This document shows, one piece after another, positions 1 to 64,000 of a stretch of 64,000 nucleotides of DNA; within the stretch, counting starts at the first letter, position 1; every line of letters starts with the position of its first letter. Below the pieces are notes generated by a model, which saw only the letters and a list, made by a program, of their open reading frames with translations, searched no databases and had not been told where the DNA came from. The stretch is from the NCBI GenBank assembly GCA_019359675.1, contig JAHHGX010000087.1:1-64000 (forward strand), written 5' to 3'. Made by a program: the position numbers and the translations under genes. This DNA comes from Calothrix sp. FI2-JRJ7 (GTDB lineage Bacteria; Cyanobacteriota; Cyanobacteriia; Cyanobacteriales; Nostocaceae).

Positions 1-267
1 GCGCCAGTCATGTAGATGCATGAATTTTAGGTAATCTTACCTTTTTGTCTTGCACGTGGGTATATTCCTTTGGTCTGATAATCTTCAAGTGTCAGCTTTC
101 CTTTCTTTTTCAGCATGCCCTAATTAATGGCACATTCCGATTGTCTAATATATTTCAAGTTTTATTACTATTTGTTTAAATATTTATAGTTATATACTTT
201 ATAAAGTAATTTTATACATTACATCCTCGCTTAATATTAAGATTATGGCGCAAAATGTCACTTTCAC

Positions 268-2733
268 TCATCCGTTACATCCGCTCTCATCCGTTGCCAG
301 GGATTTGTGTGGGAATTGTCGCACTAGCAATCTAGGAGGATTCGCAAATTGTTCTGGTTTTAATATAGATGCTATCGGCGCCAGTAGTCCATTAAATAAG
401 TCATCTACAAGTCGTTTATAAATTATGCTAGATGCGAATAATTCCAATTCGGAACGAGTTTGATTATGTTTTGCAAAAATATACAGTTTATCTAATAATT
501 TATAAAATGGTGGCGCCTGTTTTGCTATTATATGTGACCATAATGGTGGTGTTTTTGTTGGTAATTTCTCATCGTCCATGTTTAAACCAAGAGTTACTAT
601 CAACTCAATGCTATTAAATCCAAAGTTGATATATTTTTCTCCAAACATGCCAACAAAGTGACCGCTGCTAGTATCAAATTTGATTATTAAACATGTTCTA
701 TTATCATTCAATAAACACCAACTACCAATATAATCTGTTGGTTGTACGCTATTCAAGTTTAATGTAAAAATTTCTTCTGCTTCATTATTATAAGATTTAA
801 GCAAGTTCGTTAGTTGAATGCGCTCTTCGTGTGTCAAATATTTAATCGCGCTTTGCCACAGATGCAGGTCTTGATTAATTAGTGTTTTTAATTTTACTAC
901 GTTACAATCTTTGATTGCCGCAATGACATCTGATGCTAGTTGCAGCATCTTCATTTGTATCCCAGATACGCGCGCACGGTTGGCTGTAAAGGTATTTACA
1001 TAATCCCATTGTTTTAATGCAACAGCCGCATATGTTAACATGACGTTCGCATTTACTACGTCATTTTCACTCGCGCTCACTACCCGAACACGATATGATT
1101 CAAATACTTCTTCCCATGTTGTATCGGCGCCACACTCAAAGTATTCACACCAATTACTATTATTATTAAAATTTACAGCTTTGTTTCCAAACTCTGCTTC
1201 CATCCAATATTGATACCACCATTCATCACCGAACGGTCGTACCCTTTTTAAATAATCATACCAAACTTGTATTTTTGCGGGTGATTTATCGCCATCGAAC
1301 ACTGCACCTAAGAACCATTCAACAGGTGCCACTTTTCGGTAATGTTCAAAGAATATTCGTACTACTAAGCTAGGGTCACTACCTTTATTAATGATATTAT
1401 GTAACTTCCTGCGTAAGTAAGCGACTTGGTGCCTTTCTTCGAGAGTTAAAAGTTCACCGTATTGGCTAAAATCAGGTTTACGACTTCTCGATTTAATTTC
1501 AGCCGCGAGGTTACTACACTTACTATATATATAGCCGCATTCACAGACTCGCGCGTAACGATTAATTAAAGCATTACACTGTGAGCACGATTTTAATTTT
1601 GGCTCAAATGTTTGTGGTTCTTTTTCAATTGGACATAATGAGATTGGATGATGCTCAGTCACAAATCCTAGTCTTGAAAAATTATCACAAAAGTCAAGCA
1701 AATAAGCGTAGGTTTTACCTGCATACTTTCGTGTTGGGCGCCCGCTCATCTGGTACAGTTTAGATAAGCTGGCTGTAGGGTAAGCCAGTACAGCGGCGTT
1801 ACATATAGGCGCATCGAACCCTTCGGTAAATACTGAAACACCCACTAATGCTTTAATAATACCCGCATTATATTGTTCGTACAGGTCATCGCGCTCTTTA
1901 CTTGATGTCGTTCCTACAATTAAACCCGCACGTAAACCAGCATTATTAAGTTGTGTATATACATCTGTTGCTTGTTTAACAGTGCCACAAAATACTACTG
2001 AATTTAAGTGCCCGTAATGACGTTTGTATTCAAGCACGACTTTTTCGTTAAATGTGGCATCACATACTAATTCTAATGATTCGGCGGTATAATCGTCGGT
2101 GCCCATCGTCAACTTTGAGTAGTCAATTAAACCACCCCAGCCAAAATGGCGTACTGGTGTAACTTCACCCAACGCTGCTAGTTCGTCGAGGTATGGGCCA
2201 ACTACTAGAGAATCATAAAATTGACAAAAACCTTGCTGTTGTTTTGTACGCCAAGGTGAACCAGTTAATCCCAAAAATTTACATTTCGACAGAGCAAATA
2301 CACCACCGCTGTAGTGCAGCATAATATTATATGTAGTGCCCCAGTAACTTGTGGTGTGTGCCTCATCGAAAATTACTAAGTCTATATCGGGTGGTAAGTC
2401 ACGCTTACCAAGGGTCTGTAGCATTGCTACTTGCACAGGCGCCTTATAATTGACAGGGTTGGCGCCGTGGATAACACTTGAGGCAATGCCATAAAATCGT
2501 TGTAGCTTATCTACTGTTTGCCCAACTAACTTGGTACGGTGACAGCAAAACAAAATACGTTTACCGCTTTGTACCCATCGCGCGATTAAATCTGCTGCTA
2601 CCACAGTCTTTCCACCACCTGTAGGCAAAAACAATAAGCATGATTTTTTACCTGAGCGGTAGTGATTTTCAATTTTTTCTAACAACTCTTGCTGTATGCT
2701 AGATAATTGGATGGCGCTTGCAGTAGATGGCAT
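268..2733 (-). CDS. DEAH-box superfamily 2 helicase (SSL2/ResIII-like) with long unknown C-terminus
   Basis: Probable ATP-dependent nucleic-acid helicase or translocase, about 821 aa. Near the N-terminus lie a Walker A loop (PTGGGKT, about residues 37-43), the DEAH box (about 123-126), motif III (LTGSPW) and, after a RecA2 domain, motif VI (QMSGRPTRK). A four-Cys knuckle with CSQC and CECG follows at about 385-405. The remaining ~400 residues match nothing I recognise. An ATG at 2733 is chosen; a GTG two codons upstream is the alternative. The start codon forms one half of a CATATG palindrome whose other half starts the divergent 236-aa gene, so no intergenic DNA remains. No Shine-Dalgarno is visible. 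Helicase identity is clear; the cellular role (repair, plasmid function or defence) is not. Confidence 0.85.
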   Translation of the reverse strand: MPSTASAIQLSSIQQELLEKIENHYRSGKKSCLLFLPTGGGKTVVAADLIARWVQSGKRILFCCHRTKLVGQTVDKLQRFYGIASSVIHGANPVNYKAPVQVAMLQTLGKRDLPPDIDLVIFDEAHTTSYWGTTYNIMLHYSGGVFALSKCKFLGLTGSPWRTKQQQGFCQFYDSLVVGPYLDELAALGEVTPVRHFGWGGLIDYSKLTMGTDDYTAESLELVCDATFNEKVVLEYKRHYGHLNSVVFCGTVKQATDVYTQLNNAGLRAGLIVGTTSSKERDDLYEQYNAGIIKALVGVSVFTEGFDAPICNAAVLAYPTASLSKLYQMSGRPTRKYAGKTYAYLLDFCDNFSRLGFVTEHHPISLCPIEKEPQTFEPKLKSCSQCNALINRYARVCECGYIYSKCSNLAAEIKSRSRKPDFSQYGELLTLEERHQVAYLRRKLHNIINKGSDPSLVVRIFFEHYRKVAPVEWFLGAVFDGDKSPAKIQVWYDYLKRVRPFGDEWWYQYWMEAEFGNKAVNFNNNSNWCEYFECGADTTWEEVFESYRVRVVSASENDVVNANVMLTYAAVALKQWDYVNTFTANRARVSGIQMKMLQLASDVIAAIKDCNVVKLKTLINQDLHLWQSAIKYLTHEERIQLTNLLKSYNNEAEEIFTLNLNSVQPTDYIGSWCLLNDNRTCLIIKFDTSSGHFVGMFGEKYINFGFNSIELIVTLGLNMDDEKLPTKTPPLWSHIIAKQAPPFYKLLDKLYIFAKHNQTRSELELFASSIIYKRLVDDLFNGLLAPIASILKPEQFANPPRLLVRQFPHKSLATDESGCNG

Positions 2734-3417
2734 ATGCACGATAATAACAATGACTTAAGCAACCGGAATAATAAATTTTACCTCAATTTTACGCAAATAG
2801 GTAAAATTATTTTAGTTGATAATCAAAAATATTTTAAGTGCGAATCGGATGGATTGGTTTTCCCGATTAAAATCAAAGGTAATTATCGCTCGCAAGACAC
2901 TGATATTATAGATAAATTAGGATACTTTTCTATAATTCCAAGTTGTGATAGTGGTGGAAAAATTATTTCTTATCACATTATTGAGCTAAATAAAAAAGCT
3001 AAATCAGAAGTGTTTATTATTCAAGCAAGGGTCAAGCAAACAATCCGCACTGGTGCTGTAGAGCTTTTAATGAATGTCGCAGGTAGTACAAATATCACAA
3101 TTCCTGTGCAAACAAATAATAAATTTAAAATGACCAATAATCTAATATACCTTTGTCAAGGATATAGAGAAAATGATAAAATTTATATTTCTAACTATGC
3201 TCTTATTCCTGAAGTAGAAGAAACAACCGTAGTTGAACAATCGAATACAAACGTCAATAAATACGCTGAAATTGTCGCATCGAACCAAGATGGTATCTTA
3301 ATATACATTCCTGCAAGTGAAATTGAAACAACTCAATGGCGCCCGACTGTTGACAAAAAGTATAAGCTAGTAACACTCCCAGATGGCATCAAAATAATTA
3401 ATGATATACCTAAATAA
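2734..3417 (+). CDS. hypothetical protein, beta-rich, partner of divergent helicase
   Basis: Unrecognised protein of 227 aa from the ATG at 2734; a TTG at 2707 would add 9 residues inside the divergent helicase gene. The predicted strand pattern, short alternating hydrophobic segments with Lys and Asn-rich loops in two halves, suggests two small beta-barrel (OB-like) domains, but this is only inference from residue pattern. No signal peptide, membrane segment or catalytic motif is seen. It is AT-rich, as is the following 377-aa gene 119 bp downstream on the same strand, so the two may be cotranscribed. Its immediate abutment on a helicase gene suggests a shared nucleic-acid function. Confidence 0.6.
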   Translation: MHDNNNDLSNRNNKFYLNFTQIGKIILVDNQKYFKCESDGLVFPIKIKGNYRSQDTDIIDKLGYFSIIPSCDSGGKIISYHIIELNKKAKSEVFIIQARVKQTIRTGAVELLMNVAGSTNITIPVQTNNKFKMTNNLIYLCQGYRENDKIYISNYALIPEVEETTVVEQSNTNVNKYAEIVASNQDGILIYIPASEIETTQWRPTVDKKYKLVTLPDGIKIINDIPK

Positions 3418-3536
3418 TAAAATTGATAATGTCGGTGTTCAATTTACGTAAACTTTTTATAACAATTGTTGAATATATTTGCTAAATATGCTATTTCAAG
3501 AATATAAGAATTATAACAATTCTGTCCAGGATTTAA

Positions 3537-4670
3537 ATGGCAACAAGCAAAAAGTTAACGACAGAACAAGAAGAAGCAAAATTAACAGATATTGAAAATC
3601 GTCTATCGCAATTATTGACTAAAAGTCGGGCAGATTGGACAGAGATGGCGAAGCTGACTTTGAATGTACAGCAACAAAAGCTTTATAGACAAGGTGGTTT
3701 TTCTTCGTTTTCGGCTTGGGTGCGACAGTTAGCTGTTACCAATGACCGTGAACCGTCATTACTTTGGCGATTTATCAAAGCTGCAAAGTATTTCCTTAAA
3801 TTAACAGGAAACGACGATTTAGAGGAAGTTCACAAAGCCGCGCGTATACCACCTGAAGCTTTAGAAAAACTTGAAAAACTCCAACGTCAGGCGCCAACTC
3901 CGGTATTTGAGACTTTGAAAAAGCGAGTTTTTTCTGGAGATGCAACGGTTGCAGAGTGTCGGCGCCTAGAAAAAGATTATAGACCACCGATTACAGAAGC
4001 ACGTACAAATCGTGGGCGCCCGCACAAAGGACAAGAAGGGAAAATAGAACATTTAGGGCATTGGAGAGGAACGGCATTTAATACATTTATTGAGCAAACA
4101 CAAGGAGAACTTGAAATTAAAGCGATACCAGCAGCAAGTAGTCGCTTTACAAGTCGTCAAATTGCATCCACAATCAAACGCGCACTTAAAGAAGATTGTA
4201 CTTGGATGCAAAACTATACAAATATTAGACACGCTCCAAAACATTGGGCAACGCACCAAGAAGTACCTATTATCAAATCTCAAGCACTGCGTTTAGATTT
4301 AGTTGGTGTAGTTCGGTGGAATTTTAAACAGCCAAAAGACTTATTTGCCGTCAAAATTATCAGTTGCACCGATGATTTAGAATACTTCGCAAATTGGGAA
4401 AATTATTCAGAATACTGTAATTATCTTTGTTTTGCCAGTCCACTTGATAACACCGAGTTATTAGATACACTTCGAGACACAGCATCACAATTTGACTTCA
4501 TTGGCATTTTAGGTATCGATTTTTCGGCAAAGCTGAGTGACTCTATAGCATATCCTATACAAGTTATTCGCTATTCGCGGCGCCTGACTGGTAACAACAT
4601 CACTTCTGTATACGAAACCTTATACGAACAAGCACTGGGATGGTCAGAAATTGAAACCGATACAATGTAG
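3537..4670 (+). CDS. hypothetical protein, helical N-terminus with nuclease-fold-like C-terminus
   Basis: 377 aa, start ATG with AGGA about 8 nt upstream. The N-terminal ~150 residues are helical and charged (a coiled-coil-like stretch, then a segment with FSAWVRQLA), resembling plasmid- or phage-borne DNA-binding proteins. At about residues 255-345 the spacing of a W, two Y, YC and FASP resembles the MmcB/DUF2204 branch of the PD-(D/E)XK fold, but the expected E-x-K pair reads V-K-I-I, so catalysis is doubtful. The stop codon TAG lies inside a dispersed TGTAGAGACG palindrome (4666-4695), so the original C-terminus may have been longer. It follows the 236-aa gene and may form a unit with it and the divergent helicase. 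Function unknown. Confidence 0.6.
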   Translation: MATSKKLTTEQEEAKLTDIENRLSQLLTKSRADWTEMAKLTLNVQQQKLYRQGGFSSFSAWVRQLAVTNDREPSLLWRFIKAAKYFLKLTGNDDLEEVHKAARIPPEALEKLEKLQRQAPTPVFETLKKRVFSGDATVAECRRLEKDYRPPITEARTNRGRPHKGQEGKIEHLGHWRGTAFNTFIEQTQGELEIKAIPAASSRFTSRQIASTIKRALKEDCTWMQNYTNIRHAPKHWATHQEVPIIKSQALRLDLVGVVRWNFKQPKDLFAVKIISCTDDLEYFANWENYSEYCNYLCFASPLDNTELLDTLRDTASQFDFIGILGIDFSAKLSDSIAYPIQVIRYSRRLTGNNITSVYETLYEQALGWSEIETDTM

Positions 4671-4695
4671 AGACGTTACATATAACGTCTCTACA
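4666..4695. repeat. TGTAGAGACG-family palindrome
   Basis: Near-perfect 30-nt inverted repeat, arms TGTAGAGACGTTA and TAACGTCTCTACA. Its first bases contain the stop codon of the 377-aa gene. Related copies lie at 14839, 40219, 55802 and 57962. It could also act as a hairpin terminator. Confidence 0.85.
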
Positions 4696-4704
4696 CGGTT
4701 ATTA

Positions 4705-4776
4705 TCATTCCATTTTTGAAACAAACAGCGCTGAGAATAATACATATCCACCTAAAAAGGCAAAAATTGCAAACAT
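4705..4776 (-). CDS. possible 23-aa single-span membrane peptide
   Basis: A short ORF reads MFAIFAFLGGYVLFSALFVS followed by KME. It is almost entirely one hydrophobic helix with a charged C-terminal tail, typical of small subunits of membrane complexes. A good Shine-Dalgarno (GGAGG) lies about 6 nt upstream of the ATG. I do not recognise it as any known small photosystem, cytochrome b6f or NDH subunit. Too short for ordinary gene calling; the ribosome binding site is the main support. Confidence 0.4.
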   Translation of the reverse strand: MFAIFAFLGGYVLFSALFVSKME

Positions 4777-5395
4777 CGGTAAGCCTCCTATTAATGAAAA
4801 GAGGAATGTGTAAACTATACCTCTATATATTATTGACAGTAACAAGCTTGTAACATCTACTTAAAAGCGTATTCTTTCAGCCCAGCCCCACGCTTGTTAA
4901 TATCAATATTTTATTCAACGATACAATTTTCAATATAGCACCTCCTTAAATCTTTTGTATCACACCTAATACTAATTTTTGTATCTCTATCTTTTGGATA
5001 TTCCTATTCATATTGGCGCCTGTAAAAACTAACTACATCATGTTTCTACATATACAGAAACCTGGTTTCTTCCTTGATAGCATGTAATAAAAATGACGGT
5101 TTTGCGTAGAAACCACGTTTCTTTGCGTAAGTCATAATATAAATTTACATTCAGTTACATACGTATTTACACTGATGTTAGATTTGTGACAAATGCTTAA
5201 CTTCAATATAATTACTAATGACAAGTAACTGTAAAGAGCAAATAATGAATGTTAACTATAAGCAACTATAGTTTCCTATGCAGTCACAATCAACTAAATG
5301 ATTCTCAACGCCATACATGTACTTGACCTTGTTTGAATTTTATATTCAGACAAGGCATTTATTTGCAATCTGTTATTATTAAGCTTTCGTGCTAT
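4777..5395. other. gene-poor AT-rich intergenic region
   Basis: No convincing gene is seen. It contains a pair of AGAAACC-type palindromes at 5056 and 5108 and presumably promoters for the flanking small ORFs. No tRNA or riboswitch pattern was recognised. Confidence 0.5.
5056..5122. repeat. paired AGAAACC/GGTTTCT palindromes
   Basis: Two 15-nt palindromes (AGAAACCTGGTTTCT at 5056 and AGAAACCACGTTTCT at 5108) lie 52 nt apart, start to start. The same pairing at 50-51 nt occurs at 6482/6532 and 54566/54617. Confidence 0.75.
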
Positions 5396-5536
5396 ATGTA
5401 TTTGAACAAATTATTTTTCATGTTGTTTACGACAGGGTATATATTATCTCCACAATTAGCGCTTGCTCAAATCATACCCGATAGCACCATCGCAAACCCA
5501 ACAAAACTCAATTGCATCATAAAGCTTGATATATAG
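5396..5536 (+). pseudogene. N-terminal remnant of a filamentous-haemagglutinin/TpsA-like secreted protein
   Basis: 46 aa from the ATG; a TTG at 5333 extends the frame. A hydrophobic signal peptide ends ALAQ and is followed by IIPDSTIANPTKLN, the motif that opens the mature TPS (two-partner secretion) domain of cyanobacterial haemagglutinin-like proteins. The frame then stops, and the next 250 bp do not continue the family, so only the first ~20 mature residues survive. Such proteins are normally many hundreds of residues and are exported by a TpsB partner; none is present here. Confidence 0.55.
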
Positions 5537-5784
5537 ACATTTTCGCAAAATTTATAATTTAAACCTGTAAAAATTTGCACCATTGGTAATTACTGTTGTT
5601 TTTATTAATACAGATAGTAATAATACTTAAGAAGTAAGAAGAAGCGTTTACTGATTTAAAGCCGGCGAATATTCAATATTTCCAGTATTATTACGGCTCT
5701 GATTAACTAATATATATACTTATTAACTGAAATACGATTTGTTTATATCAGTAAATTTAGGTGTAGTATAATAATTTCCACGTA

Positions 5785-5807
5785 GCACAGGCATTCGGCG
5801 CCTGTGC
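5785..5807. terminator. hairpin downstream of yqaE-like gene
   Basis: Stem GCACAGGC/GCCTGTGC with a 7-nt loop that includes a GGCGCC site. It lies 18 bp past the stop of the minus-strand 52-aa gene. There is no strong U-tract, so termination is uncertain. A near twin lies at 35462. Confidence 0.4.
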
Positions 5808-5825
5808 TTTGAGTTTTAAGTCAGG

Positions 5826-5984
5826 CTATTTCTTCGCTATAATCCAAACTGCGTGAATTATACCTGGTACATATCCAAACAAAGTTAGTAGTATATTTAT
5901 CCAAAAATCTATACCAATACCAACTTGTAAAAATACACCCAGTGGGGGCAAGAAAATAGCACAGATAATCCGAACTAAATCCAT
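5826..5984 (-). CDS. YqaE/Pmp3 family small membrane protein
   Basis: 52-aa protein with two hydrophobic helices: it begins MDLVRIICAIFLPPLGVFLQ, then has FWINILLTLFGYVPG and a short AVWIIAKK tail. The PPLGVFLQ-G and GYVPGIIHA motifs are the signature of the Pmp3/YqaE (UPF0057) proteolipids, which are linked to membrane potential and salt or cold tolerance in several organisms. A strong AGGAGG ribosome binding site lies 6 nt before the ATG. Length is normal for the family. It stands alone, followed by a hairpin. Confidence 0.9.
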   Translation of the reverse strand: MDLVRIICAIFLPPLGVFLQVGIGIDFWINILLTLFGYVPGIIHAVWIIAKK

Positions 5985-6121
5985 TTACATCCTCCTTAAG
6001 AATGATGGTGCCAGAAATAGCAAACCATCTAACTTGTTATATCTACAAGCTTAATATCAACACGAGAAAACATGATTCCGTTCAAGATTCGGTAAACCGT
6101 ACCAAAGTTTCGTACAATCGT

Positions 6122-6472
6122 TTAACCACCACTAATTTTGGCTTTGTAACCCATTTTGGTGAGAATTTCTAAAAGTTTCTGTTTGTGTTCGCCTTGTATT
6201 TCTATTTCCGAGTCTTTTAAGGCGCCACCTGTACCGCACTGTGTTTTTAACTGTTTTAATAAGGCTTGTAGAGTTTCTGGTTTGGCTTGAAAACCAGTAA
6301 TGACGGTAACAGTTTTACCTTTACGTCCTGCACGTGTTGCTTGCACACGCAAATTTTGCTTTTCAGGTGGTAATTCCTCAACAGGTCGCTCGAATGCTGC
6401 TGAGTTGTTTTTTACACCATCACCAAATTCACGCCAAGCTAAACCGTCTGAAGAATTTCCTTTCTTTGCCAT
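6122..6472 (-). CDS. yciH: SUI1/eIF1-like translation initiation factor YciH
   Basis: 116 aa, with start moved to the ATG at 6472. Longer in-frame starts up to 6565 only translate the palindromic repeats at 6482-6546. The protein has a variable polar N-terminus followed by the compact SUI1 domain (KGKTVTVITGF, then CGTGGALKD). Bacterial YciH homologues resemble eukaryotic eIF1 and can influence start-site fidelity in vitro. It sits 76 bp downstream of ubiD on the same strand, but the repeat pair between them makes shared transcription uncertain. Confidence 0.9.
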   Translation of the reverse strand: MAKKGNSSDGLAWREFGDGVKNNSAAFERPVEELPPEKQNLRVQATRAGRKGKTVTVITGFQAKPETLQALLKQLKTQCGTGGALKDSEIEIQGEHKQKLLEILTKMGYKAKISGG

Positions 6473-6481
6473 GATAATTAA

Positions 6482-6546
6482 GAAACCGGGTTTCTGTTCG
6501 AGATTAGCGTTTTTAATGCAGTTTATCATAAGAAACCCGGTTTCTA
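6482..6546. repeat. paired AGAAACC/GGTTTCT palindromes
   Basis: AGAAACCGGGTTTCT at 6482 and AGAAACCCGGTTTCT at 6532, 50 nt apart start to start, between ubiD and yciH. Translating through them produces a false N-terminal extension of YciH. Confidence 0.8.
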
Positions 6547-6548
6547 GG

Positions 6549-8054
6549 TTACATATCGTAACCAAATAAATTGGGGTTAACTTCTCCTAATTCTAAGTCA
6601 GCTAAACCATATTCAGCCCAACGTCTTTCTACCATTGTGGCAGTATCTGGGTCGGACTCTAAAGGCGCCCCCCATTCGTGTTCTGTTTCTGGTGGTATTT
6701 TCGTAGTAGCGTCAATACCCATGCGTCCACCTAAACCTAATTTTTCGCTAGCGAAGTCTAAGGTGTCGAATGGAGTGTTGGGTAAAATAAAGACATCGCG
6801 TGTGGGGTCTACTTTAGAACTTATTGCCCAGACAACTTGACGTGGGTCACGTATATTTATATCTTTGTCTACGACAATCACAAATTTTGTGTATGTAAAT
6901 TGTGGCAACGCACTCCAAAAAGCTAATGCGGCACGACGCGCTTGTCCTGGATATGCTTTATCTATAGATATAACTGCCGCTTTGTAACTTAATGCTTCCA
7001 TTGGTAGGAAGAAATCTACAATTTCAGAAACCTGTTGGCGCAGAATTGGTGTATATATACGGTTGAGCGCAATAGCCATCATCGCTTCTTCTTTTGGTGG
7101 GCGCCCGCTAAATGTAGTTAAATAAATAGGGTCTTTGCGGTGCGTCATGCATTGAAAGCGTACTAATGGCGAATCTTCAACTACACCGTAATATCCCATA
7201 TGGTCGCCAAATGGTCCATCTGGTAATACTTCACCTGGTGTTATTGTACCTTCAAGTACTATTTCGGAATCGGCAGGAACTTCTAAATCTACTGTTTTAC
7301 ATTTGGCTAAACTTACACCACTACCACCGTACAAACCAGCAAATAACCACTCTGATAAATCTACAGGTATCGGTGTTGCTGCTGCCATGATAATTAACGG
7401 GTCTACACCAAGCGCAATTGCAACCTCTAACTTTTTACCACGTTCGGCTGCTTTGCGTAAATGACGGGCGCCTCCTCTTACCGACAACCAATGTACAGTC
7501 ATCGTATTTTTAGATTGTAGCTGTAAACGATACACACCTACATTGGGTACACCAGTTTCACAATCCCTTGTAATTACCAGCCCAAGCGTAATTATCTTAC
7601 CTGCATCACCTGGATATGGACGTATCATTGGTATCTGATTTAAATCTAAATCATCACCCTGCACAACTACTTGCTGACATGCAGGGAAAAAATCACGTCC
7701 AGGTTTTGCTTTGACGACATCGAATAATACTTTACCAAAATCGATTGCTTGAGAAATTTTCTTTGGTGGTTTTGGTTGTTGCAACATCGCAAGCTTTTTC
7801 CCCAAACCTTCTAACTCTAGGGGATGCTCCATATTCATTGCCCAACATATCCGCTCTACCGTCCCCATTAAATTTACCGCAACAGGGAACGCGGCGCCTT
7901 TGACGTTCTCAAATATTAAACCTGGGCCACCTTTTGCGAGCATTCGGTTGGAAATCTCAGCAATTTCTAAATTTGGGTCAACGGGCGCCGTAATTCGCCG
8001 TAATTGTCCTCTTTCTTCCAATATTTTGATAAATCCACGTAAATCGCGTGCCAT
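6549..8054 (-). CDS. ubiD: UbiD family prenyl-FMN-dependent decarboxylase
   Basis: 501 aa, the usual length. The start ATG at 8054 gives MARDLRGFIKILEERGQLRR, the typical cyanobacterial N-terminus; ten upstream codons are not conserved. TRDCETGVPNVGVYR (about 162-176) and GPFGDHMGYY (about 280-289) are UbiD active-site and cofactor-binding blocks. UbiD enzymes use prenylated FMN to decarboxylate aromatic or alpha,beta-unsaturated acids. In cyanobacteria the likely substrate is a prenylated 4-hydroxybenzoate-type plastoquinone precursor, which is inferred. The prenyltransferase UbiX is not in the window. Cytosolic. Confidence 0.95.
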   Translation of the reverse strand: MARDLRGFIKILEERGQLRRITAPVDPNLEIAEISNRMLAKGGPGLIFENVKGAAFPVAVNLMGTVERICWAMNMEHPLELEGLGKKLAMLQQPKPPKKISQAIDFGKVLFDVVKAKPGRDFFPACQQVVVQGDDLDLNQIPMIRPYPGDAGKIITLGLVITRDCETGVPNVGVYRLQLQSKNTMTVHWLSVRGGARHLRKAAERGKKLEVAIALGVDPLIIMAAATPIPVDLSEWLFAGLYGGSGVSLAKCKTVDLEVPADSEIVLEGTITPGEVLPDGPFGDHMGYYGVVEDSPLVRFQCMTHRKDPIYLTTFSGRPPKEEAMMAIALNRIYTPILRQQVSEIVDFFLPMEALSYKAAVISIDKAYPGQARRAALAFWSALPQFTYTKFVIVVDKDINIRDPRQVVWAISSKVDPTRDVFILPNTPFDTLDFASEKLGLGGRMGIDATTKIPPETEHEWGAPLESDPDTATMVERRWAEYGLADLELGEVNPNLFGYDM

Positions 8055-8153
8055 TCTACTGATATTCCAATAATTAAGAATCATTAAGCGCTTTCTTTAT
8101 TATCGGTCTTTCGGCAACGGATAAGAAACGGATATAGCAGATAGATTATTAGG

Positions 8154-8312
8154 ACTTACGCAATTGGTACATAAAAACCGTAGGGTGTGTGACGCTATGA
8201 ACAAATTGTAACGTAGCGATAAGACTTGTAGCGTCACGCACCAGCCTTACTTACGCAATTGGTACATAAAAACCGTAGGGTGTGTGACGCTATGAACAAA
8301 TTGTAACGTAGC
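8154..8312. repeat. tandem duplicated GTGCGTGACGC-family repeat
   Basis: A 64-nt segment at 8154-8217 recurs exactly at 8249-8312. The first copy continues into a matching inverted arm (GCGTCACGCACC); in the second copy that arm is deleted and the flank resumes at ACCAGCCTTACTTA. Same family as 17891, 25851, 41039 and 53890. Confidence 0.85.
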
Positions 8313-8914
8313 ACCAGCCTTACTTATCGTATTAATGGTGCGTGAAAGCACTTTAAATTTTCGTTACATTGATTGACAGTAATGGCTTTCACGCACCCTA
8401 CCCAATTTTATTGGCGCCGACCAATGCTTAAGGGGTGCGCCAAGCACATGAAACAAACAAACGCTGCCAAGTCGTGGTTAACGAGATTATTCGTCTGCAA
8501 CATCAACTAGATTTAACTCAAAATCATTAAGTTTTTATGTGCATTGGACTTATAGAGGCGCCTGTCAATACTTGTCGGTTAAGGGGGAAAGGGAAAAATA
8601 CGGTAAAACAAGGCTTATAGCCCCTTCCTTAGAAGCAGAGATGCCTTCTCTTGTGAGTTTACGCTTAAGCCACAAGTTTCAACATGCCCTGTCCACCCTG
8701 TTTCATTTAACACTAACGTTGGTTGCTTTGAGGCGGCGATTTATTGTTCCCTAGGGTGGGCACAACAGGCATTTTTATAAGCTAAATTTGCGCTAAATTT
8801 ATTCAGCAATCATCACTAATCATCAATCATATTGCGATTAAACTTTGTTTCACAGGTTATAGTAAAATACCCCTAGAAAGCTCGAAATCGGTAAGTAGTA
8901 TGGGTTTGAAAATA
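8313..8914. other. intergenic region between ubiD and tRNA-Val
   Basis: Holds another hairpin repeat at 8338-8400 (GGTGCGTGAAAGC with GCTTTCACGCACC). A short frame ending near 8529 could be the tail of a lost gene, but I do not recognise it. The 71-aa frame at 8539-8754 shows no protein-like features. No other gene is supported. Confidence 0.5.
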
Positions 8915-8987
<73 letters not shown>

Positions 8988-9156
8988 GTGCTTGACTCGC
9001 CAGAATTAAATATAGCAAAGCTGTTTTAAAAAAGCAAGTCTTTTTTAAAAGTTTTTCGGCAATGTGGTTAATTATGTTTTTTTGCAGCCAGTTTGGGTAA
9101 TATACTTATCGAACGTATCCTTGAATGTTACTTACTTGAGCGTTTAAAAAGTATGT

Positions 9157-9211
9157 TATGTTGGGTTGCGCCTACGGCATACTACGTAAACGCAAAGCCT
9201 CCACCCTACCT
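9157..9211. repeat. 55-nt dispersed repeat, copy 1
   Basis: Begins TATGTTGGGTTGCGCC. The reverse complement with one visible mismatch is present at 20466-20520. Shorter relatives occur at 52552 and 62443. Confidence 0.85.
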
Positions 9212-9218
9212 ACTCTTA

Positions 9219-9252
9219 ACTCAGCACTCAGCACTTTGCACTCAGCACTCTC
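9219..9252. repeat. short tandem CTCAGCA-type heptamers
   Basis: About four imperfect copies of a CTCAGCA/TTTGCA-like 7-mer directly before the ATG of the DUF2227-like gene. Short tandemly repeated heptamers are a known feature of filamentous cyanobacterial genomes. Confidence 0.6.
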
Positions 9253-9254
9253 TT

Positions 9255-9851
9255 ATGCCTTCTGGTCGGACTCATGACCGTATTACTATTTGGGTTTTGC
9301 CTGTTCTCGTTGGCGCCACTTTTTGGCAAACGCGCAATGGGAATATTACGCTGCTTATTGCTACGGGGTTTATGTTGGGTGGGTTAATGTTTGGGCCTGA
9401 CTTGGATATATATTCGGTGCAGTATCAGCGCTGGGGATGGTTCAAGTGGATTTGGTTGCCGTATCAAAAGAGTTTACGTCATCGTTCGTTTTTATCGCAT
9501 GGCCCCGTTATTGGGACTGCGCTACGAGTACTTTATTTTACAAGCTTTATTAGTGTTGTTACAGTTATTGTTTTGTTAATTGCTGAGAAAAGCGGTAATT
9601 TAACGCTAAATTGGCATAGTTTGGGTGATAGCATCGCGAATACAGTAGTTATTCATAAGGCTGAATTTATCGCTTTGTTTCTCGGTCTAGAGTTGGGCGC
9701 CATGAGTCATTATCTCAGCGATTGGACGGGTTCCACTTACAAGCGCATCAAAAAACAAGGAATCCGTCAATATTTAAAGGGACTAGCAAATAATGGCAAA
9801 ATTAAGAAACGTAAACGAGTCGTCAGAAAGCGGAAAGTGAAAAGCAAATAA
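9255..9851 (+). CDS. DUF2227-like membrane protein (putative metal-binding)
   Basis: 198 aa from the ATG at 9255, which gives MPSGRTHDRITIW, the conserved opening of this cyanobacterial family. Upstream in-frame codons translate the repeats at 9157-9252 and are rejected. Conserved His and Asp residues appear in GRTHDR, FGPDLD, LRHRSFLSHGP and MSHYLSDW, a pattern read as metal-binding; two or three hydrophobic segments suggest membrane association. The C-terminus is strongly basic. It ends 2 bp before mazG, so they are probably cotranscribed. Biochemical role unknown. Confidence 0.8.
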   Translation: MPSGRTHDRITIWVLPVLVGATFWQTRNGNITLLIATGFMLGGLMFGPDLDIYSVQYQRWGWFKWIWLPYQKSLRHRSFLSHGPVIGTALRVLYFTSFISVVTVIVLLIAEKSGNLTLNWHSLGDSIANTVVIHKAEFIALFLGLELGAMSHYLSDWTGSTYKRIKKQGIRQYLKGLANNGKIKKRKRVVRKRKVKSK

Positions 9852-9853
9852 TT

Positions 9854-10654
9854 ATGAACGAAAATCTTCAAGCATTACAAGAACTGATCGACGTAGTAGC
9901 AAAACTTCGTAACCCCGATGGGGGATGTCCGTGGGACTTGGAGCAAACACCGCAAACTTTAACACCCTATATTATAGAAGAAGCATACGAAACTGTAGAT
10001 GCAATCAAAAGCGGTGACAAAAATGCTATTGCCGAAGAACTCGGAGATTTACTGTTACAAGTAGTACTACAAGCACAAATAGCTAGTGAACATGGAGATT
10101 TTTCTTTAAAAGAAGTTGCGGAAGGCATTTCACAAAAACTAATTAGGCGCCATCCTCATGTATTTAGTGATACATCAGTACAAAGCGTTGATGAGGTGCG
10201 ACAAAATTGGGAGCAAATAAAAGCCACAGAAAAAGGACAATCTGCCCAAGAACAAGCATTGCTCAGTAACAAACTTAGTCAATACAACAAAAAACTGCCA
10301 CCTTTAACAGCAGCAATGAAAATTTCTCAAAAAGCAGCAGGCGCCGGGTTTGAGTGGGAAAGTATAGATGGAGTATGGAGCAAGTTCGCGGAAGAAGTAG
10401 AAGAATTTAAACAAGCTTTAGCGCACGAAACACCTCAACAGCAAGAAGCAGAATTTGGAGATGTGCTATTTTCACTCGTCCAACTCGCACGCTGGAATAA
10501 TATCGACCCAGCAGAAGCATTACATGGAACAAATCAACGCTTTATTCAAAGACTCAAAAAAATGGAAGCGTTTGCCGACCGTCCACTTGCCGAATATACC
10601 TTGGCAGAATTAGAAGAACTTTGGCAACGTGCAAAAAAAGAATTACTTACCTAA
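9854..10654 (+). CDS. mazG: nucleoside triphosphate pyrophosphohydrolase MazG
   Basis: 266 aa, normal length, with two MazG repeats. The first contains CPWD, EEAYE (42-46) and EELGD (61-65); the second has AEEVEEFKQAL and EFGDVLFSLV (about 178-212). These E-x-x-E and D motifs bind Mg and the triphosphate. The enzyme hydrolyses NTPs or dNTPs to monophosphate and PPi, cleaning non-canonical nucleotides. It follows the DUF2227-like gene by 2 bp and overlaps the convergent proC by 12 bp at the 3' ends. Confidence 0.95.
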   Translation: MNENLQALQELIDVVAKLRNPDGGCPWDLEQTPQTLTPYIIEEAYETVDAIKSGDKNAIAEELGDLLLQVVLQAQIASEHGDFSLKEVAEGISQKLIRRHPHVFSDTSVQSVDEVRQNWEQIKATEKGQSAQEQALLSNKLSQYNKKLPPLTAAMKISQKAAGAGFEWESIDGVWSKFAEEVEEFKQALAHETPQQQEAEFGDVLFSLVQLARWNNIDPAEALHGTNQRFIQRLKKMEAFADRPLAEYTLAELEELWQRAKKELLT

Positions 10655-11455
10655 CTCTTGCGAACGGTTAGTAGCTGCTCTGACAGCTTGAATTAAAGCT
10701 GAACGAAATGCTGCTTTCTCTAATTCAGCTATTCCAGCGATAGTAGTACCACCTGGACTTGTCACCCGGTCTTTTAATTCAGCCGGATGAATTTTGGTTT
10801 CTTGTAGTAATGTAGCTGTACCTAATACTGTTTGTAATGCTAATTGCTGGGCAATAGGACGCGGTAAACCAGATGCAACACCACCATCTGCGAGAGCTTC
10901 CACCATTAATGCTACATACGCAGGTCCACTTCCCGATAACCCCGTCACAGCATCCATCAAACTTTCAGAAACTTCTACTACTTCCCCTACTGCTGAAAAT
11001 AACTGACGCGCTTTCTCCAAATGATTTGCCTGAGTATCTTTACCCGCACAAATTGCTGTAATTCCGGCGCCTACAGTTGCAGGAGTATTAGGCATTGCAC
11101 GTACCACAGGTAAACCTACAAAAGCTGCTTCCAACTGTCCTAAAGTCACCCCTGCCAAAATTGATACAATCAAAGGAAAATGACTTTGACTAATGACACT
11201 AGAAATTTCCTGAGTTACACTAGTGAATACCTGGGGCTTGATGGCTAAAAAGAGTACCTCCCCACCCGAATTAAACACTTCAGTGTTTTCCCCAACCACA
11301 TTTACTGCATATTTTTTAGCTAAAAGTTCCCTCCGTACAAAAGAAGGTTCACTAACAATAATTTCCGAAGATTTATAAATATTTTGATTGATGAGACGGG
11401 ATAACAGCGCTTCACCCATTACCCCGCCACCGATTAAGCCAAATTTTACTGACAA
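10643..11455 (-). CDS. proC: pyrroline-5-carboxylate reductase
   Basis: 270 aa. Catalyses NAD(P)H-dependent reduction of P5C to proline, the last step of proline synthesis. The N-terminal Rossmann motif GLIGGGVMG, the AMPNTPATVG loop, and the dimerisation-domain motif SGSGPAY and CVTSPGGTT-like DRVTSPGGTTIAG are all present. The start appears to be TTG at 11455, supported by AGGGTGA 7 nt upstream; no ATG fits. It is the last gene of the conserved pipX-pipY-sepF-proC order, 167 bp after sepF. Confidence 0.95.
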   Translation of the reverse strand: MSVKFGLIGGGVMGEALLSRLINQNIYKSSEIIVSEPSFVRRELLAKKYAVNVVGENTEVFNSGGEVLFLAIKPQVFTSVTQEISSVISQSHFPLIVSILAGVTLGQLEAAFVGLPVVRAMPNTPATVGAGITAICAGKDTQANHLEKARQLFSAVGEVVEVSESLMDAVTGLSGSGPAYVALMVEALADGGVASGLPRPIAQQLALQTVLGTATLLQETKIHPAELKDRVTSPGGTTIAGIAELEKAAFRSALIQAVRAATNRSQELGK

Positions 11456-11622
11456 GTCGAATTCACCCTAATATACTAAATACTAAATTTGGATAAATGA
11501 TACTCTTTCCAGCCTAAGAAAGATTCATATCGCAAGGATTTTTAATCTATTTTTCCCCTATTAAATCCCGGCGCCCAAATTTGTCCTGATATCACTTAAA
11601 TTGCTGCGAATAAAGGTATTTA

Positions 11623-12231
11623 TTACTGTGCCATACGAACTGGGTCAGAACCCCATGTTTGAGTTGGGTTTGCAGAAGCAGGAGGACGATTTGGACGCGC
11701 TGGATGCTGTGGCACTTCATGTAAAACTCCACCTTGAGTGCTTACTTGTACACAACTTGGTGTGAACAAGAAAATACTTTCACCAATACGTTCTTGATGT
11801 CCATCAAGTGCGTATGTTCCACCTGCGACAAAATCAACCGCTCGCTGCGCTTGATCCGGATCCATTATTGTTAAATTCAATACCACCGATTTACGCTCAC
11901 GTAGTGCCTGAATCGCTTGAGGCATTTCTTCAAACGTCCGTGGTTCAAGCACTAACACTTCCGAAATTCCATTTAAAGCTCCGGGCATACCTATTACATT
12001 ATTCATTGTTTTTGCACCTGCTACACCAGTATTCATTGTAGTCATGGGTTCACGCCAACGTCCATTGTTCGCTGGTGCTTCTGCTGGTTGAGGTGCTGGT
12101 TGTTGTGGTGGGTTTTGCTCTTGGTAGATGTTCTGATAATTATCGTTATCAACTTCTTCGTAGTACTCATACTCTTCTACTGGTTCATTTAAACCAACGA
12201 AGTCTTTTAATTTGGTAAATATGTTGTTCAT
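11623..12231 (-). CDS. sepF: cell division protein SepF (Cdv2)
   Basis: 202 aa. The acidic Tyr-rich N-terminus ([20 protein letters not shown]) carries the membrane-binding helix. A Pro/Gln-rich linker follows, then the SepF core (residues ~85-175; [39 protein letters not shown]). SepF tethers FtsZ to the membrane and aids septum assembly. AGGAG lies 9 nt before the ATG. It is in the classic neighbourhood downstream of pipY and upstream of proC. Confidence 0.95.
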
Positions 12232-13340: not shown

Positions 13341-13387
13341 ATGCGCGCGGTTTGGGTGGGAAGCGCGTTTGTTTTAATTAGTGGGTG

Positions 13388-14209: not shown

Positions 14210-14222
14210 TTGGATGTTGTTG

Positions 14223-16940: not shown

Positions 16941-16941
16941 C

Positions 16942-17889: not shown

Positions 17890-17890
17890 A

Positions 17891-18112: not shown

Positions 18113-18114
18113 GT

Positions 18115-27508: not shown

Positions 27509-29711
27509 ATTGCAATATTAAATAATCCCTGAAAGGGATTGAAACCAGCATAACCAACACGTGAACCTGTATTAACAATATTGCAATATTAAATAATCCC
27601 TGAAAGGGATTGAAACTTAGAATCAGAAAATATGGTATAGAACCAAATATAATTGCAATATTAAATAATCCCTGAAAGGGATTGAAACCCGCTTTTTCTG
27701 CATACCTCGAAGCTTGTGTTGATGCTATTGCAATATTAAATAATCCCTGAAAGGGATTGAAACTAGTTGAAAAACTAATTCAAACAAAAGTAGAAGAATT
27801 GCAATATTAAATAATCCCTGAAAGGGATTGAAACCTTACGTTGGTATGGTAAAGAAAATAATAAAAAAGATTGCAATATTAAATAATCCCTGAAAGGGAT
27901 TGAAACTGATTGCAATATTTCTTTTGTTCCCTTTTCTGTAAATTGCAATATTAAATAATCCCTGAAAGGGATTGAAACAAGCTCAAAGAAGAAGTAAAAG
28001 TTCTGGCGCCTATTGCAATATTAAATAATCCCTGAAAGGGATTGAAACTCAATCCCGCACGCAGGATTCGTGTGTGTGCTGCAATTGCAATATTAAATAA
28101 TCCCTGAAAGGGATTGAAACAGAGAATTATTATCTCCTCCCTTATTCCCCTTAAATTGCAATATTAAATAATCCCTGAAAGGGATTGAAACGTTATGCCA
28201 GCCATAATCGAAACAATCGCGACGAAGAATTGCAATATTAAATAATCCCTGAAAGGGATTGAAACATTCAGCGTGTTAGCACTGCTACTACTAAAGAAAT
28301 TGCAATATTAAATAATCCCTGAAAGGGATTGAAACCCTCGTTTTACCCAGTATTCCTCGACCCAATGGGTATTGCAATATTAAATAATCCCTGAAAGGGA
28401 TTGAAACTTTTCGCCTTTCTGGAGTTCGTAAATAGTGTGTATTGCAATATTAAATAATCCCTGAAAGGGATTGAAACGGCAATAAGAAGTGTATCTATCA
28501 TAATGTTGAGCAAATTGCAATATTAAATAATCCCTGAAAGGGATTGAAACGAAAAATTTGGGTCGTAAAATATGTAATTGTAAGTATTGCAATATTAAAT
28601 AATCCCTGAAAGGGATTGAAACAAAAAGATAACGAATCATCAAGTGCCTCGGATAAAATTGCAATATTAAATAATCCCTGAAAGGGATTGAAACAGAAAA
28701 ATCCTGATAAACCTCAGAAACTCTTTCTATAGATTGCAATATTAAATAATCCCTGAAAGGGATTGAAACGTATTCTGTTGCATCATCTCTTTCAAAGCTA
28801 GATATTGCAATATTAAATAATCCCTGAAAGGGATTGAAACCCTTCTTTTTTATTTGCTTCATATAATCTAAATACAATTGCAATATTAAATAATCCCTGA
28901 AAGGGATTGAAACATTGGATATTCTGCCATATTTACCTTTGTTTGTATTGCAATATTAAATAATCCCTGAAAGGGATTGAAACTGAAGCGATTCGTAAAC
29001 TGCTTGACACTCCTGTAAAAAATTGCAATATTAAATAATCCCTGAAAGGGATTGAAACACTACTACTTGAATTACCATGAAAGGCGCCATTTAATTGCAA
29101 TATTAAATAATCCCTGAAAGGGATTGAAACTGAAAAATTATGGCAGTTAACAAAAAACATTATTGCAATATTAAATAATCCCTGAAAGGGATTGAAACCA
29201 AGTTGTTGCATGGTGTAAGACTTGATGCTGTGATATTGCAATATTAAATAATCCCTGAAAGGGATTGAAACTGATTCTGATTTTCAAAAGCATCTTGACC
29301 GTACAAAAAAATTGCAATATTAAATAATCCCTGAAAGGGATTGAAACTCCTACAGTAGAAACTCAAAACTTTGTAGTTCAAATTGCAATATTAAATAATC
29401 CCTGAAAGGGATTGAAACAAGGCTAGATTCCACGGTAACGAGTCATTACCTGTAGATTGCAATATTAAATAATCCCTGAAAGGGATTGAAACTACTACTG
29501 CCCTTGCTTTACCGCGCTCTTTAACAAATTGCAATATTAAATAATCCCTGAAAGGGATTGAAACCTTTAAACCCCGTGTACTCTAAACCATCTTCACTTA
29601 ATTGCAATATTAAATAATCCCTGAAAGGGATTGAAACGAGCAAAGAAAAAGTGCATACGAGAAAATCATCAAACATTGCAATATTAAATAATCCCTGAAA
29701 GGGATTGAAAC
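27509..29711 (+). CRISPR. CRISPR array, 31 identical repeats and 30 spacers
   Basis: The 37-nt repeat starts ATTGCAATATTAAATAATC and ends GGGATTGAAAC, with a short internal CCCTGAAAGGG stem. I counted 31 copies with no visible variation and 30 spacers of 31-39 nt, mostly 33-37. The ATTGAAAC end is the usual 8-nt crRNA 5' handle of cyanobacterial type I-D, I-B or III arrays, so the crRNA strand is plus and the leader lies before 27509. No cas gene is in the 64-kb window; the array depends on Cas proteins encoded elsewhere or is orphaned. Uniform repeats argue for recent activity. Two spacers contain GGCGCC. Confidence 0.98.
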
Positions 29712-63267: not shown

Positions 63268-63478
63268 AAAATTTTAGTGACTTTTTGCATAAATTAGCAA
63301 ATATAGGAGTCATAAATCATACTGCTATTGGTATAAATTACAAATATTTGTATACCTTTAGTCGTAGATTAACTATATCTACTATAAAAGAAAACAATTG
63401 TATATTATGCCGTTAGCACGATGACTTGGGGTAAAAATAGTTGGATATTGTTTAATGATGCGGCGCAGGTAACAATAC

Positions 63479-64000
63479 ATGGTAGTGAATCAACTTTTGT
63501 TTAAACAGCATATTGAACGCATTGCAATAGTGCGCGCGTTGCCTGGTTTGGAAAATTTGATGTGTATTATTCCAGCTTTGCGAGTATTACGTGCAGCATT
63601 CCCTAATGCTCATATAACTTTGATTGGATTATTCTCTCCAGAGATTATAAAACAGCGATGGCGCCACTTAATTGACGATTTTATTGAATTTCCAGGCTAT
63701 CCAGGTATTCCAGAATCACCCTCAGTTGAAAAAATCCCAGAATTTTTAGCCAAAGTTCACGCTTTACACTTTGACTTAGCGTTACAAATGCACGATAACG
63801 GTACTATTATAAATAGCTTTACTTCTTTACTCGGCGCCCGTATTAACGCCGGATTTTATATTCCCGGTTATTATTGTCCAGACCCCACCTATTTTATACA
63901 CTATCCTGATAACCAACCGGAAATATGGCGCCATCTACAATTAATGAAATTTTTAGGTATCCCAGTTCAAGACGACGAATTAGAATTTCCACTTTTACAA
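63479..64000 (+). CDS. glycosyltransferase family 9 (heptosyltransferase-like), partial
   Basis: The first 174 codons of a gene cut by the window end. ATG at 63479, weak GCAGGT upstream. IAIVRALPGLENLMCIIPAL and LRAAFPNAHITLIG are the N-terminal GT9 fold; FDLALQMHDNGTIINSF is the conserved substrate-facing loop. GT9 enzymes add heptose or related sugars to lipopolysaccharide or glycan chains. Upstream are 211 bp of non-coding DNA. Confidence 0.85.
   Translation, partial: MVVNQLLFKQHIERIAIVRALPGLENLMCIIPALRVLRAAFPNAHITLIGLFSPEIIKQRWRHLIDDFIEFPGYPGIPESPSVEKIPEFLAKVHALHFDLALQMHDNGTIINSFTSLLGARINAGFYIPGYYCPDPTYFIHYPDNQPEIWRHLQLMKFLGIPVQDDELEFPLLQ

What the first reader, a model, noticed from the sequence alone, without database searches (positions are those of the whole stretch)
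1..64000. GGCGCC replaces HIP1 as the over-represented palindrome
By eye I count about 120 GGCGCC sites, roughly one per 500 bp, in coding regions, gaps and CRISPR spacers. At the low GC content here a few would be expected by chance. I saw no GCGATCGC (HIP1). Alternate highly iterated palindromes paired with a matching methyltransferase are described for some cyanobacteria; this window looks like a clear case. In frame 1 it reads Gly-Ala, but it appears in all frames and in non-coding DNA, so it is not a codon effect.
Basis: partly seen in the sequence, partly recalled or inferred. Interest (0 to 1): 0.7.

Follow-up and report, generated by a model that had tools for sequence, protein, structure and literature searches.

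The report
GGCGCC replaces HIP1 across one genus
This cyanobacterium and its close relatives have swapped the usual repeated DNA word of their kin for another, GGCGCC, and comparing the relatives suggests that the word is chemically marked at its central C and kept in place, which offers a way to test what such repeated words are for.

Summary
In detail: the window holds 123 GGCGCC (5.6 expected, order-1) and no HIP1; the genome holds 14,889 and 31. The kind is already published: Elhai 2015 (PMC4390886) described GGCGCC replacing HIP1 in Calothrix PCC 7103, here a congener. New here: (1) it is genus-wide, 7 of 7 genomes at 1150-1719 per Mb, against at most 111 in the 210 other family genomes held. 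(2) The best candidate writer is an m5C methyltransferase of GRCGYC (BsaHI/HindVP) type, in 7 of 7; its usual partner endonuclease is found in 0 of 7. (3) Relatives' sites differ mostly by C3>T (99 of 128 one-step differences, G000/G061), as expected if C3 is 5-methylcytosine, while outer bases are nearly frozen even at synonymous positions; non-coding sites point the same way, weakly. C3>T discordance stays flat (0.13-0.23) from 6% to 18% divergence while other CpGs rise from 0.16 to 0.48. So the word looks maintained, not merely accumulated by a gain ratchet. Selection and site-directed repair are not separated; methylation was not measured.

The parts
1..64000 (.). 123 GGCGCC sites spread through the window; no GCGATCGC
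28005..28010 (.). GGCGCC inside a CRISPR spacer (spacer about 27979-28011)
29083..29088 (.). GGCGCC inside a CRISPR spacer (spacer about 29059-29093)
27509..29711 (+). CRISPR array, 37-base repeat; 31 exact matches to the repeat core and 30 spacers; the repeat consensus lacks GGCGCC

Best explanation
GGCGCC is an alternate highly iterated palindrome (HIP) shared by the whole genus that holds Calothrix PCC 7103 and Dulcicalothrix desertica PCC 7102. An ancestor had a GRCGYC restriction-modification pair of the BsaHI/HgiDI/HindVP type, lost the endonuclease and kept the m5C methyltransferase (G000:C79:135475-136428) as a solitary chromosomal gene. HIP1 was lost, probably driven out by avoidance of GATC, and GGCGCC, the all-G/C form of GRCGYC, took its place. 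Each site is methylated on the third base, GG(m5C)GCC. That base mutates to T by deamination, but T-states stay transient at roughly one site in ten per genome, because a force that acts on the whole word restores or purges changes. SHOWN: abundance, spread over the 7 genomes held, near-absence of HIP1, MTase present without a detected HindVP-type endonuclease, C3>T spectrum, frozen synonymous outer bases, flat C3>T discordance. INFERRED: methylation itself, MTase specificity and target base (by homology to M.BsaHI), the history and its order, and whether the force is selection or site-directed repair. I lean to purifying selection on the marked word.
For: Abundance and clade. MTase C79: relatives 81-97% identical in 6 of the 6 other genus genomes (in G062 an 83% copy plus a 97% fragment at a contig edge); beside the same RuBisCO-like gene at 6 of 7 genus loci (all but the G062 locus) and with no RE_HindVP-type neighbour at any of the 7, within about 1.5 kb. 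Outside the genus 17 of the 23 loci examined (of 55 genomes with a match) have a RE_HindVP-type neighbour; PF09519 matches 43 of 217 family genomes and 0 of 7 of the genus. M.BsaHI methylates the central C of GRCGYC (PMC2413257); C79 has the PCQ and ENV motifs and the matching TL-region residues. Where MTase and endonuclease matches coexist GGCGCC is nearly absent: median 0.71 per Mb in 39 genomes against 5.07 in 151 with neither (p=1.7e-6, relatedness not corrected), and in two of the 39, 100 kb each, all four GRCGYC forms sum to 1 against about 59 expected. Spectrum: pos3 C>T is 99/128, 55/79, 65/83, 43/65, 26/38 of one-step differences for G000/G061, G000/G065, G061/G065, G000/G063, G000/G064. 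Synonymous C6>T in GGC|GCC 4/351 against 122/1142 in other GCC codons (G061), 7/337 against 109/936 (G065), 3/261 against 167/689 (G063), 3/121 against 145/434 (G064); in another frame G1>A 0/112 against 350/3123 (G061). C3>T discordance flat against divergence.
Against: No methylation data. The MTase is GRCGYC-type, yet only one of the four forms is enriched. It is not sufficient: 16 outside genomes have an MTase match without a PF09519 match and keep GGCGCC at a median of 8.5 per Mb. C3>T inside sites is above other CpGs only in comparisons with G061 (34/224 against 380/4493; 0.226 against 0.159 and 0.195 against 0.174); against other silent GGC|G positions it is not higher in any of four comparisons (48/393 against 46/280, p=0.14; lower in the other three). 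Its hotness is thus relative to the frozen outer bases, and other CpGs of these genomes may be methylated too. Polarised C3 changes are 67 losses to 5 gains, 8 mixed, 19 without outgroup, which alone could mean decay, though the flat curve argues against that. Non-coding support is weak: outer bases changed at 8/71, 10/61, 11/31, 7/16 of sites against 85/360, 80/279, 129/248, 80/140 of GC-rich CpG hexamers (p 0.026, 0.055, 0.09, 0.43), and whole-word survival in non-coding DNA between G000 and G065 is 22/32 against 61/87 for other G/C-only words. Family f9 genomes without this MTase and with abundant HIP1 (such as G377) also show raised GGCGCC. Species pairs share branches and read each pair in both directions, so p-values are too small.
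Confidence: 0.66

Rival explanations
1. Gain-only ratchet (Elhai 2015): a GmeC-directed mismatch repair favours mutations that create methylated GC, so GGCGCC builds up to about one per kb as a by-product with no function of its own.
For: The MTase covers the word; sites reach 1.1-1.7 per kb. Some one-off neighbours are low in the pooled genus sample and not in two outside genomes: CGCGCC 0.59x against 1.83x, TGCGCC 0.44x against 1.51x (order-1); AGCGCC, GGAGCC and GGGGCC are low in both and say nothing.
Against: As I read the model, it protects bases near a site alike and so predicts no special protection of the site itself, yet outer-base changes at synonymous positions are roughly 5 to 20 times below control codons of the same genomes. 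A second GRCGYC-type MTase, which Elhai says may have been critical, has no match at E<=1e-60 in G060 and G064. His argument that alternate HIPs do not persist in clades fails here, 7 of 7.
Confidence: 0.15
2. Site-directed T:G (or wider) repair restores GGCGCC from GGTGCC, in the manner of Vsr at Dcm sites, so that the word is held by biased repair and not by fitness.
For: T-states do not accumulate with divergence, and most GGT|GCC codon pairs in one genome are GGC|GCC in the other, 48/56 for G000/G061, against 42/1215 for other GGT|G.
Against: No Vsr, PF03852, in 0 of 7 genomes. GGTGCC is 1.3-1.6x over expectation in the pooled genus sample, not depleted. T:G repair alone would not explain frozen C6 and G1.
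Confidence: 0.15
3. The word is a codon or amino-acid effect (Gly-Ala).
For: GGC|GCC is 266 of 490 Gly-Ala codon pairs in the G000 blocks.
Against: GGC is 985 of 5979 Gly codons and GCC 1143 of 7543 Ala codons, so about 12 pairs are expected; 52 of 108 coding sites in the window are in the other two frames and 15 of 123 are non-coding.
Confidence: 0.01
4. Another MTase writes the mark, for example the C31 m5C enzyme, also in 7 of 7 genus genomes, or an unsorted N4/N6 enzyme.
For: C31 is conserved in the genus; PF01555 enzymes are present in 7 of 7.
Against: C31 is in 164 of 217 family genomes at E<=1e-100, so in 157 outside the genus, none of which has more than 1053 GGCGCC.
Confidence: 0.07

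Closest known systems
Alternate HIP GGCGCC of Calothrix PCC 7103 and D253 (Elhai 2015, PMC4390886)
   Same: Same word, same loss of HIP1, other GRCGYC forms depleted, GATC depleted, GRCGYC MTases present; PCC 7103 is G061 here.
   Different: There one genome plus 19 kb and described as sporadic; here all 7 genomes held of the genus, one solitary MTase at a conserved locus, and evolutionary evidence for the marked base and for maintenance.
HIP1 GCGATCGC
   Same: Similar density, palindromic, GC-rich, associated MTases; HIP1 is reported as maintained by selection (Xu et al. 2018, seen only as cited in PMC6604393).
   Different: Different word and different MTase; HIP1 is near background here.
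BsaHI / HgiDI / HindVP GRCGYC restriction-modification systems (PMC2413257)
   Same: C79 MTase type and, outside the genus, a RE_HindVP-type neighbour at most loci examined.
   Different: No PF09519 endonuclease in 7 of 7 genus genomes.
Dcm/Vsr of E. coli (recalled)
   Same: Solitary m5C MTase whose sites are deamination hot spots.
   Different: No Vsr found; sites here are enriched about 22-fold in the window.

Membership tests
Alternate HIP (Elhai class) | GC-rich palindrome at about 1000-2000 per Mb, far over expectation | tested here: met
   1150-1719 per Mb in 7 of 7 genomes; 13-22x order-1 in 6 samples from 5 genomes
Alternate HIP (Elhai class) | HIP1 low or absent | tested here: met
   31-163 per genome against reversed control 37-75; G061 and G064 are about 3-4 times their control, still far below the thousands of most relatives
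Alternate HIP (Elhai class) | MTase predicted to recognise the word | tested here: met
   C79 type in 7 of 7, by homology only
Alternate HIP (Elhai class) | Word methylated in the cell | not testable with these tools
   Indirect only: C3>T spectrum
GRCGYC m5C MTase (BsaHI type) | m5C MTase fold and catalytic motifs | tested here: met
   PF00145 E=6.9e-66; PCQ and ENV present
GRCGYC m5C MTase (BsaHI type) | TL-region residues: R eleven before TL, G or A near position nine | tested here: met
   QRRG..TI..NRP, G or A variants against PMC2413257 section 6; register read by eye, the G/A is one residue off the stated nine
GRCGYC m5C MTase (BsaHI type) | Relatives paired with RE_HindVP endonuclease | tested here: met
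   17 of 23 outside loci (two neighbours scanned in Pfam); 59 of 80 named loci, the 6 genus loci among the 21 without
GRCGYC m5C MTase (BsaHI type) | Methylates the central C of GRCGYC | not tested
   Biochemistry seen for M.BsaHI only
Type II restriction-modification system | Cognate endonuclease present | tested here: not met
   PF09519 0 of 7
Vsr-coupled Dcm-like system | Vsr endonuclease | tested here: not met
   PF03852 0 of 7
HIP1 | GCGATCGC over-represented | tested here: not met
   0 in window, 31 in genome against a control of 51

The most novel reading that the evidence does not exclude
The HIP switch is stable at genus level and the replacement word is an actively maintained epigenetic mark: a domesticated restriction-system MTase took over the HIP role, and GG(m5C)GCC is held by selection against loss at every base, in spite of steady deamination at C3. 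HIPs would then be functional as methylated words, whatever their sequence.
Probability: 0.45. Interest if true: 0.75.

Novelty: new member of a known kind. Interest (0 to 1): 0.5.

Why it matters
Why cyanobacteria carry thousands of copies of one short palindrome is an old open question. A whole genus that changed the word gives a natural experiment: same kind of cell, different word, different methyltransferase. Alternate HIPs had been called sporadic and perhaps functionless; here one persists across a genus and its bases are conserved beyond synonymous controls. If methylation at C3 is confirmed, what is kept would be a methylated word and not HIP1 as such, and deletion of one solitary methyltransferase gene in a culture-collection strain (PCC 7102, 7103 or 7716) becomes a direct test of HIP function.

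Tried and rejected
Codon or Gly-Ala effect: rejected. HIP1 at normal density: rejected. C31 as the writer: unlikely, as it is common across the family. Vsr-type repair: no Vsr found. N6/N4 MTases of family PF01555 were listed but not sorted by specificity, so an additional writer among them is not excluded. A first polarised gain/loss analysis needing three agreeing relatives was too sparse (1 gain, 0.5 expected; 13 losses, 19.5 expected, a weaker suppression than in the later tests) and was replaced. MTase presence alone as the cause: rejected as sufficient, 16 outside genomes have a match without an endonuclease match and no rise in GGCGCC (MTase and endonuclease sets there include fragments). 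A second independent case was sought in the order. G273 has a 54% identical MTase, 9489 GGCGCC in 3.8 Mb but also 2450 of the reversed control, few HIP1 (74, control 174), GC 0.549 and only 3.4x order-1 in a 46 kb sample, with the other GRCGYC forms also up 1.4-1.9x: suggestive, not counted. G346 has an MTase match and little HIP1, but its small sample (17.7 kb, 3.6 kb of it counted twice) points to RCCGGY as its frequent word. Family f9 outliers lack the MTase and were not followed further. No structure prediction was run; it would not have told specificity. Absence from print rests on searches only, in a library without most subscription journals; Xu et al. 2018 was not fetched and is known from a citation and recall. 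Papers: PMC4390886 abstract and outline, the whole Discussion and passages of the rest; PMC2413257 passages and section 6 (found); PMC8565308 one passage; PMC6604393 passages.
Full report
OBSERVATION. The window (64,000 bp, GC 0.387) holds 123 GGCGCC against 5.6 expected from an order-1 Markov model, and no GCGATCGC. It lies on contig 87 of an 8.66 Mb genome (G000) with 14,889 GGCGCC and 31 HIP1. The reversed-pattern control for GGCGCC, CCGCGG, is 8, but it is not neutral because CCGCGG is probably a restriction target here (an MTase beside a RE_Eco29kI gene; the enzyme's target is recalled). Of the 123 sites, 108 are in called ORFs (56, 26 and 26 by phase) and 15 are outside. Two of 30 CRISPR spacers carry the word.

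EXTENT. In the own family (217 genomes held) all 7 genomes of the own genus have 7,475-20,380 GGCGCC, 1150-1719 per Mb. None of the other 210 exceeds 1053 per genome or 111 per Mb; the highest, G084, has 1053 against 1270 of its control. HIP1 is 31-163 per genome in the genus (control 37-75); in the other 210 it ranges from 30 to 8,803 and is above 1,000 in 206 (the four exceptions are G182 with 30, G194 with 535, G191 with 574 and G184 with 990). Contig lengths identify six genus members as Dulcicalothrix desertica PCC 7102 (G060), Calothrix PCC 7103 (G061), HK-06 (G062), NIES-4105 (G063), a MAG C42_A2020_038 (G064) and PCC 7716 (G065). The own genome is not among the named records listed. 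An order-wide draw of 388 genomes, with 2 of the 7 genus members in it, shows the genus as extreme but not alone in having an excess over the control: for example G377 3403 against 13, G224 2493 against 38, three genomes of one genus 1031-1121 against 10-21, G346 872 against 9, and G273 9489 against 2450.

PRIOR ART. Elhai 2015 (PMC4390886; abstract, Discussion and passages read) reported GGCGCC replacing HIP1 in Calothrix PCC 7103 and in 19 kb of Calothrix D253, two GRCGYC MTases in PCC 7103, depletion of the other GRCGYC forms and of GATC, and a gain-ratchet model in which alternate HIPs need no function. He held that alternate HIPs occur sporadically and not in clades, and that the methylated base was known for no GRCGYC enzyme. 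The first point does not hold for this genus (7 of 7). [quoted passage not shown]

THE METHYLTRANSFERASE. The genus has several m5C MTases. Sorting them leaves two types seen in 7 of 7: C31 (370 aa) and C79 (317 aa). C31 is in 164 of 217 family genomes and so is not specific. C79 belongs to the BsaHI type: PF00145, intact PCQ and ENV motifs, and the TL-region residues described for GRCGYC enzymes, with one position a residue off. It has matches at E<=1e-60 in 62 of 217 family genomes, 55 of them outside the genus. Outside the genus, 17 of the 23 loci examined have a neighbour of the type that Pfam calls RE_HindVP (two of these neighbours were scanned), and 59 of 80 named loci have one within 3 kb. 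In the genus, C79 lies beside a RuBisCO-like gene at 6 of the 7 loci examined (not at the G062 locus), no RE_HindVP-type neighbour was found at any of the 7, and PF09519 is found in 0 of 7 genomes. G060 and G064 have one C79-type match each; G000, G061, G063 and G065 have two or three, full or partial, and G062 has copies and fragments. Among outside genomes, 39 with MTase and endonuclease matches have a median of 0.71 GGCGCC per Mb, 16 with MTase only 8.51, 4 with endonuclease only 1.16, and 151 with neither 5.07 (fragments are included and relatedness is not corrected). In two of the 39 (100 kb each) the four GRCGYC forms sum to 1 observed against about 59 expected from the order-1 figures; GGTGCC is also low there (6 against 51, both strands), so a second avoided word of GGYRCC type may contribute. 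This supports the specificity, and it also shows that a solitary MTase alone does not raise GGCGCC.

EVOLUTION OF THE SITES. I aligned two G000 blocks (360 kb) to orthologous blocks of G061, G065 and G063, and the first block also to G064 (covered 255, 207, 179 and 120 kb; identity to G000 0.943, 0.935, 0.871, 0.819). One-step differences at sites are mostly C3>T on either strand: 99 of 128 (G000/G061), 55 of 79 (G000/G065), 65 of 83 (G061/G065), 43 of 65 (G000/G063), 55 of 76 (G061/G063), 25 of 47 (G065/G063), 26 of 38 (G000/G064), 30 of 42 (G063/G064). In frame GGC|GCC both C3 and C6 are silent third positions. C6>T inside sites is 4/351, 7/337, 3/261 and 3/121 for G061, G065, G063 and G064, against 122/1142, 109/936, 167/689 and 145/434 in other GCC codons; C3>T inside is 48/393, 29/357, 29/285 and 17/135 against 46/280, 43/227, 71/193 and 54/134 in other GGC|G contexts. 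A second frame repeats this: G1>A 0/112, 1/111, 2/68, 1/41 inside against 350/3123, 333/2516, 457/1697, 353/931; G4>A 26/170, 7/149, 8/109, 6/64 against 171/1318, 135/1057, 185/781, 133/397. Each pair was read in both directions and species pairs share branches, so p-values are anticonservative; block-bootstrap intervals for the C6 ratio end at 0.41 or lower in all four comparisons. In non-coding DNA the trend is the same but weak: outer bases changed at 8/71, 10/61, 11/31 and 7/16 of sites against 85/360, 80/279, 129/248 and 80/140 of GC-rich CpG hexamers (p 0.026, 0.055, 0.09, 0.43), and whole-word survival against other G/C-only words is 27/36 to 74/118 (G061) and 22/32 to 61/87 (G065). C3>T discordance is 0.226, 0.195, 0.149 at 6% divergence, 0.155, 0.208, 0.128 at 13% and 0.182, 0.209, 0.201 at 18%, while other CpGs go 0.159-0.174, 0.345-0.360, 0.458-0.479. 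Polarised with G065, C3 changes between G000 and G061 are 67 losses, 5 gains, 8 mixed and 19 without outgroup, against 493 losses and 451 gains for other CpGs. In the pooled genus sample GGTGCC is 1.3-1.6 times over expectation; CGCGCC and TGCGCC are low there and not in two outside genomes, while AGCGCC, GGAGCC and GGGGCC are low in both.

READING. A base that changes often but never drifts far, inside a word whose other bases hardly change even when silent, fits a methylated cytosine in a word that is kept. Pure decay would make discordance grow with divergence. A pure gain ratchet would leave loss rates at background. What keeps the word, selection or a repair directed at the site, is open; T:G-directed repair alone would not protect C6 and G1, and no Vsr was found. 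C3 is hot relative to the rest of the word, not clearly above other CpGs of these genomes, so the methylation inference rests on the contrast within the word together with the homology to M.BsaHI. The most economical history is loss of a GRCGYC endonuclease, retention of its MTase, loss of HIP1 with GATC avoidance (GATC 0.09-0.16x in G000, G061 and G065; 0.25x in G063; 0.43x in G064), and rise of GGCGCC. The order of these steps is inference.

VERDICT. Observation confirmed; interpretation supported; kind already known; extension to a whole genus, the solitary enzyme and the evolutionary footprint are, as far as the searches show, not in the library that was searched.

Noticed in passing
genus samples, e.g. 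L169-L178 (G063) and L179-L188 (G064): CGCGCG is a second enriched palindrome: 8.2x in G063, 7.2x in G064, 5.0x in G065, 3.9x in G061, 2.2-3.2x in G000; between G000 and G061 it is not conserved (30 shared, 21 polarised losses, 8 gains).
   Followed up: partly
G273 (L320-L323): A genome of another family with a GRCGYC-type MTase without a HindVP-type neighbour seen in the ORFs of its 3.9 kb locus, few HIP1 and many GGCGCC (9489 in 3.8 Mb, control 2450), in a genus whose other sampled member G251 has HIP1: possible second independent switch.
   Followed up: partly
G377, G224, G252, G274, G398 (family f9): Raised GGCGCC (1031-3403, control 10-38) without a C79-type MTase match; HIP1 abundant (2362-15293).
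   Followed up: no
L069 (G000:C61), 580-7132: m5C MTase and RE_Eco29kI gene beside genes with pPIWI_RE island domains, near a contig end.
   Followed up: no
window and genus samples: GATC (0.09-0.43x) and GGCC (0.10-0.17x) are strongly avoided in the 6 genus samples; GATC avoidance is weaker in the two most distant members G063 and G064.
   Followed up: partly
window 27979-28011 and 29059-29093: Two CRISPR spacers contain GGCGCC although spacers usually come from foreign DNA; their sources were not sought.
   Followed up: no
G194 (family f1, genus g49): Low HIP1 (535 in 10.7 Mb) and no C79-type MTase match; its frequent word, if any, was not determined.
   Followed up: no
G204 and G006 samples (L189-L198): GGTGCC/GGCACC is strongly depleted (6 against 51 expected, both strands), as if GGYRCC were also avoided in these genomes.
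   Followed up: no
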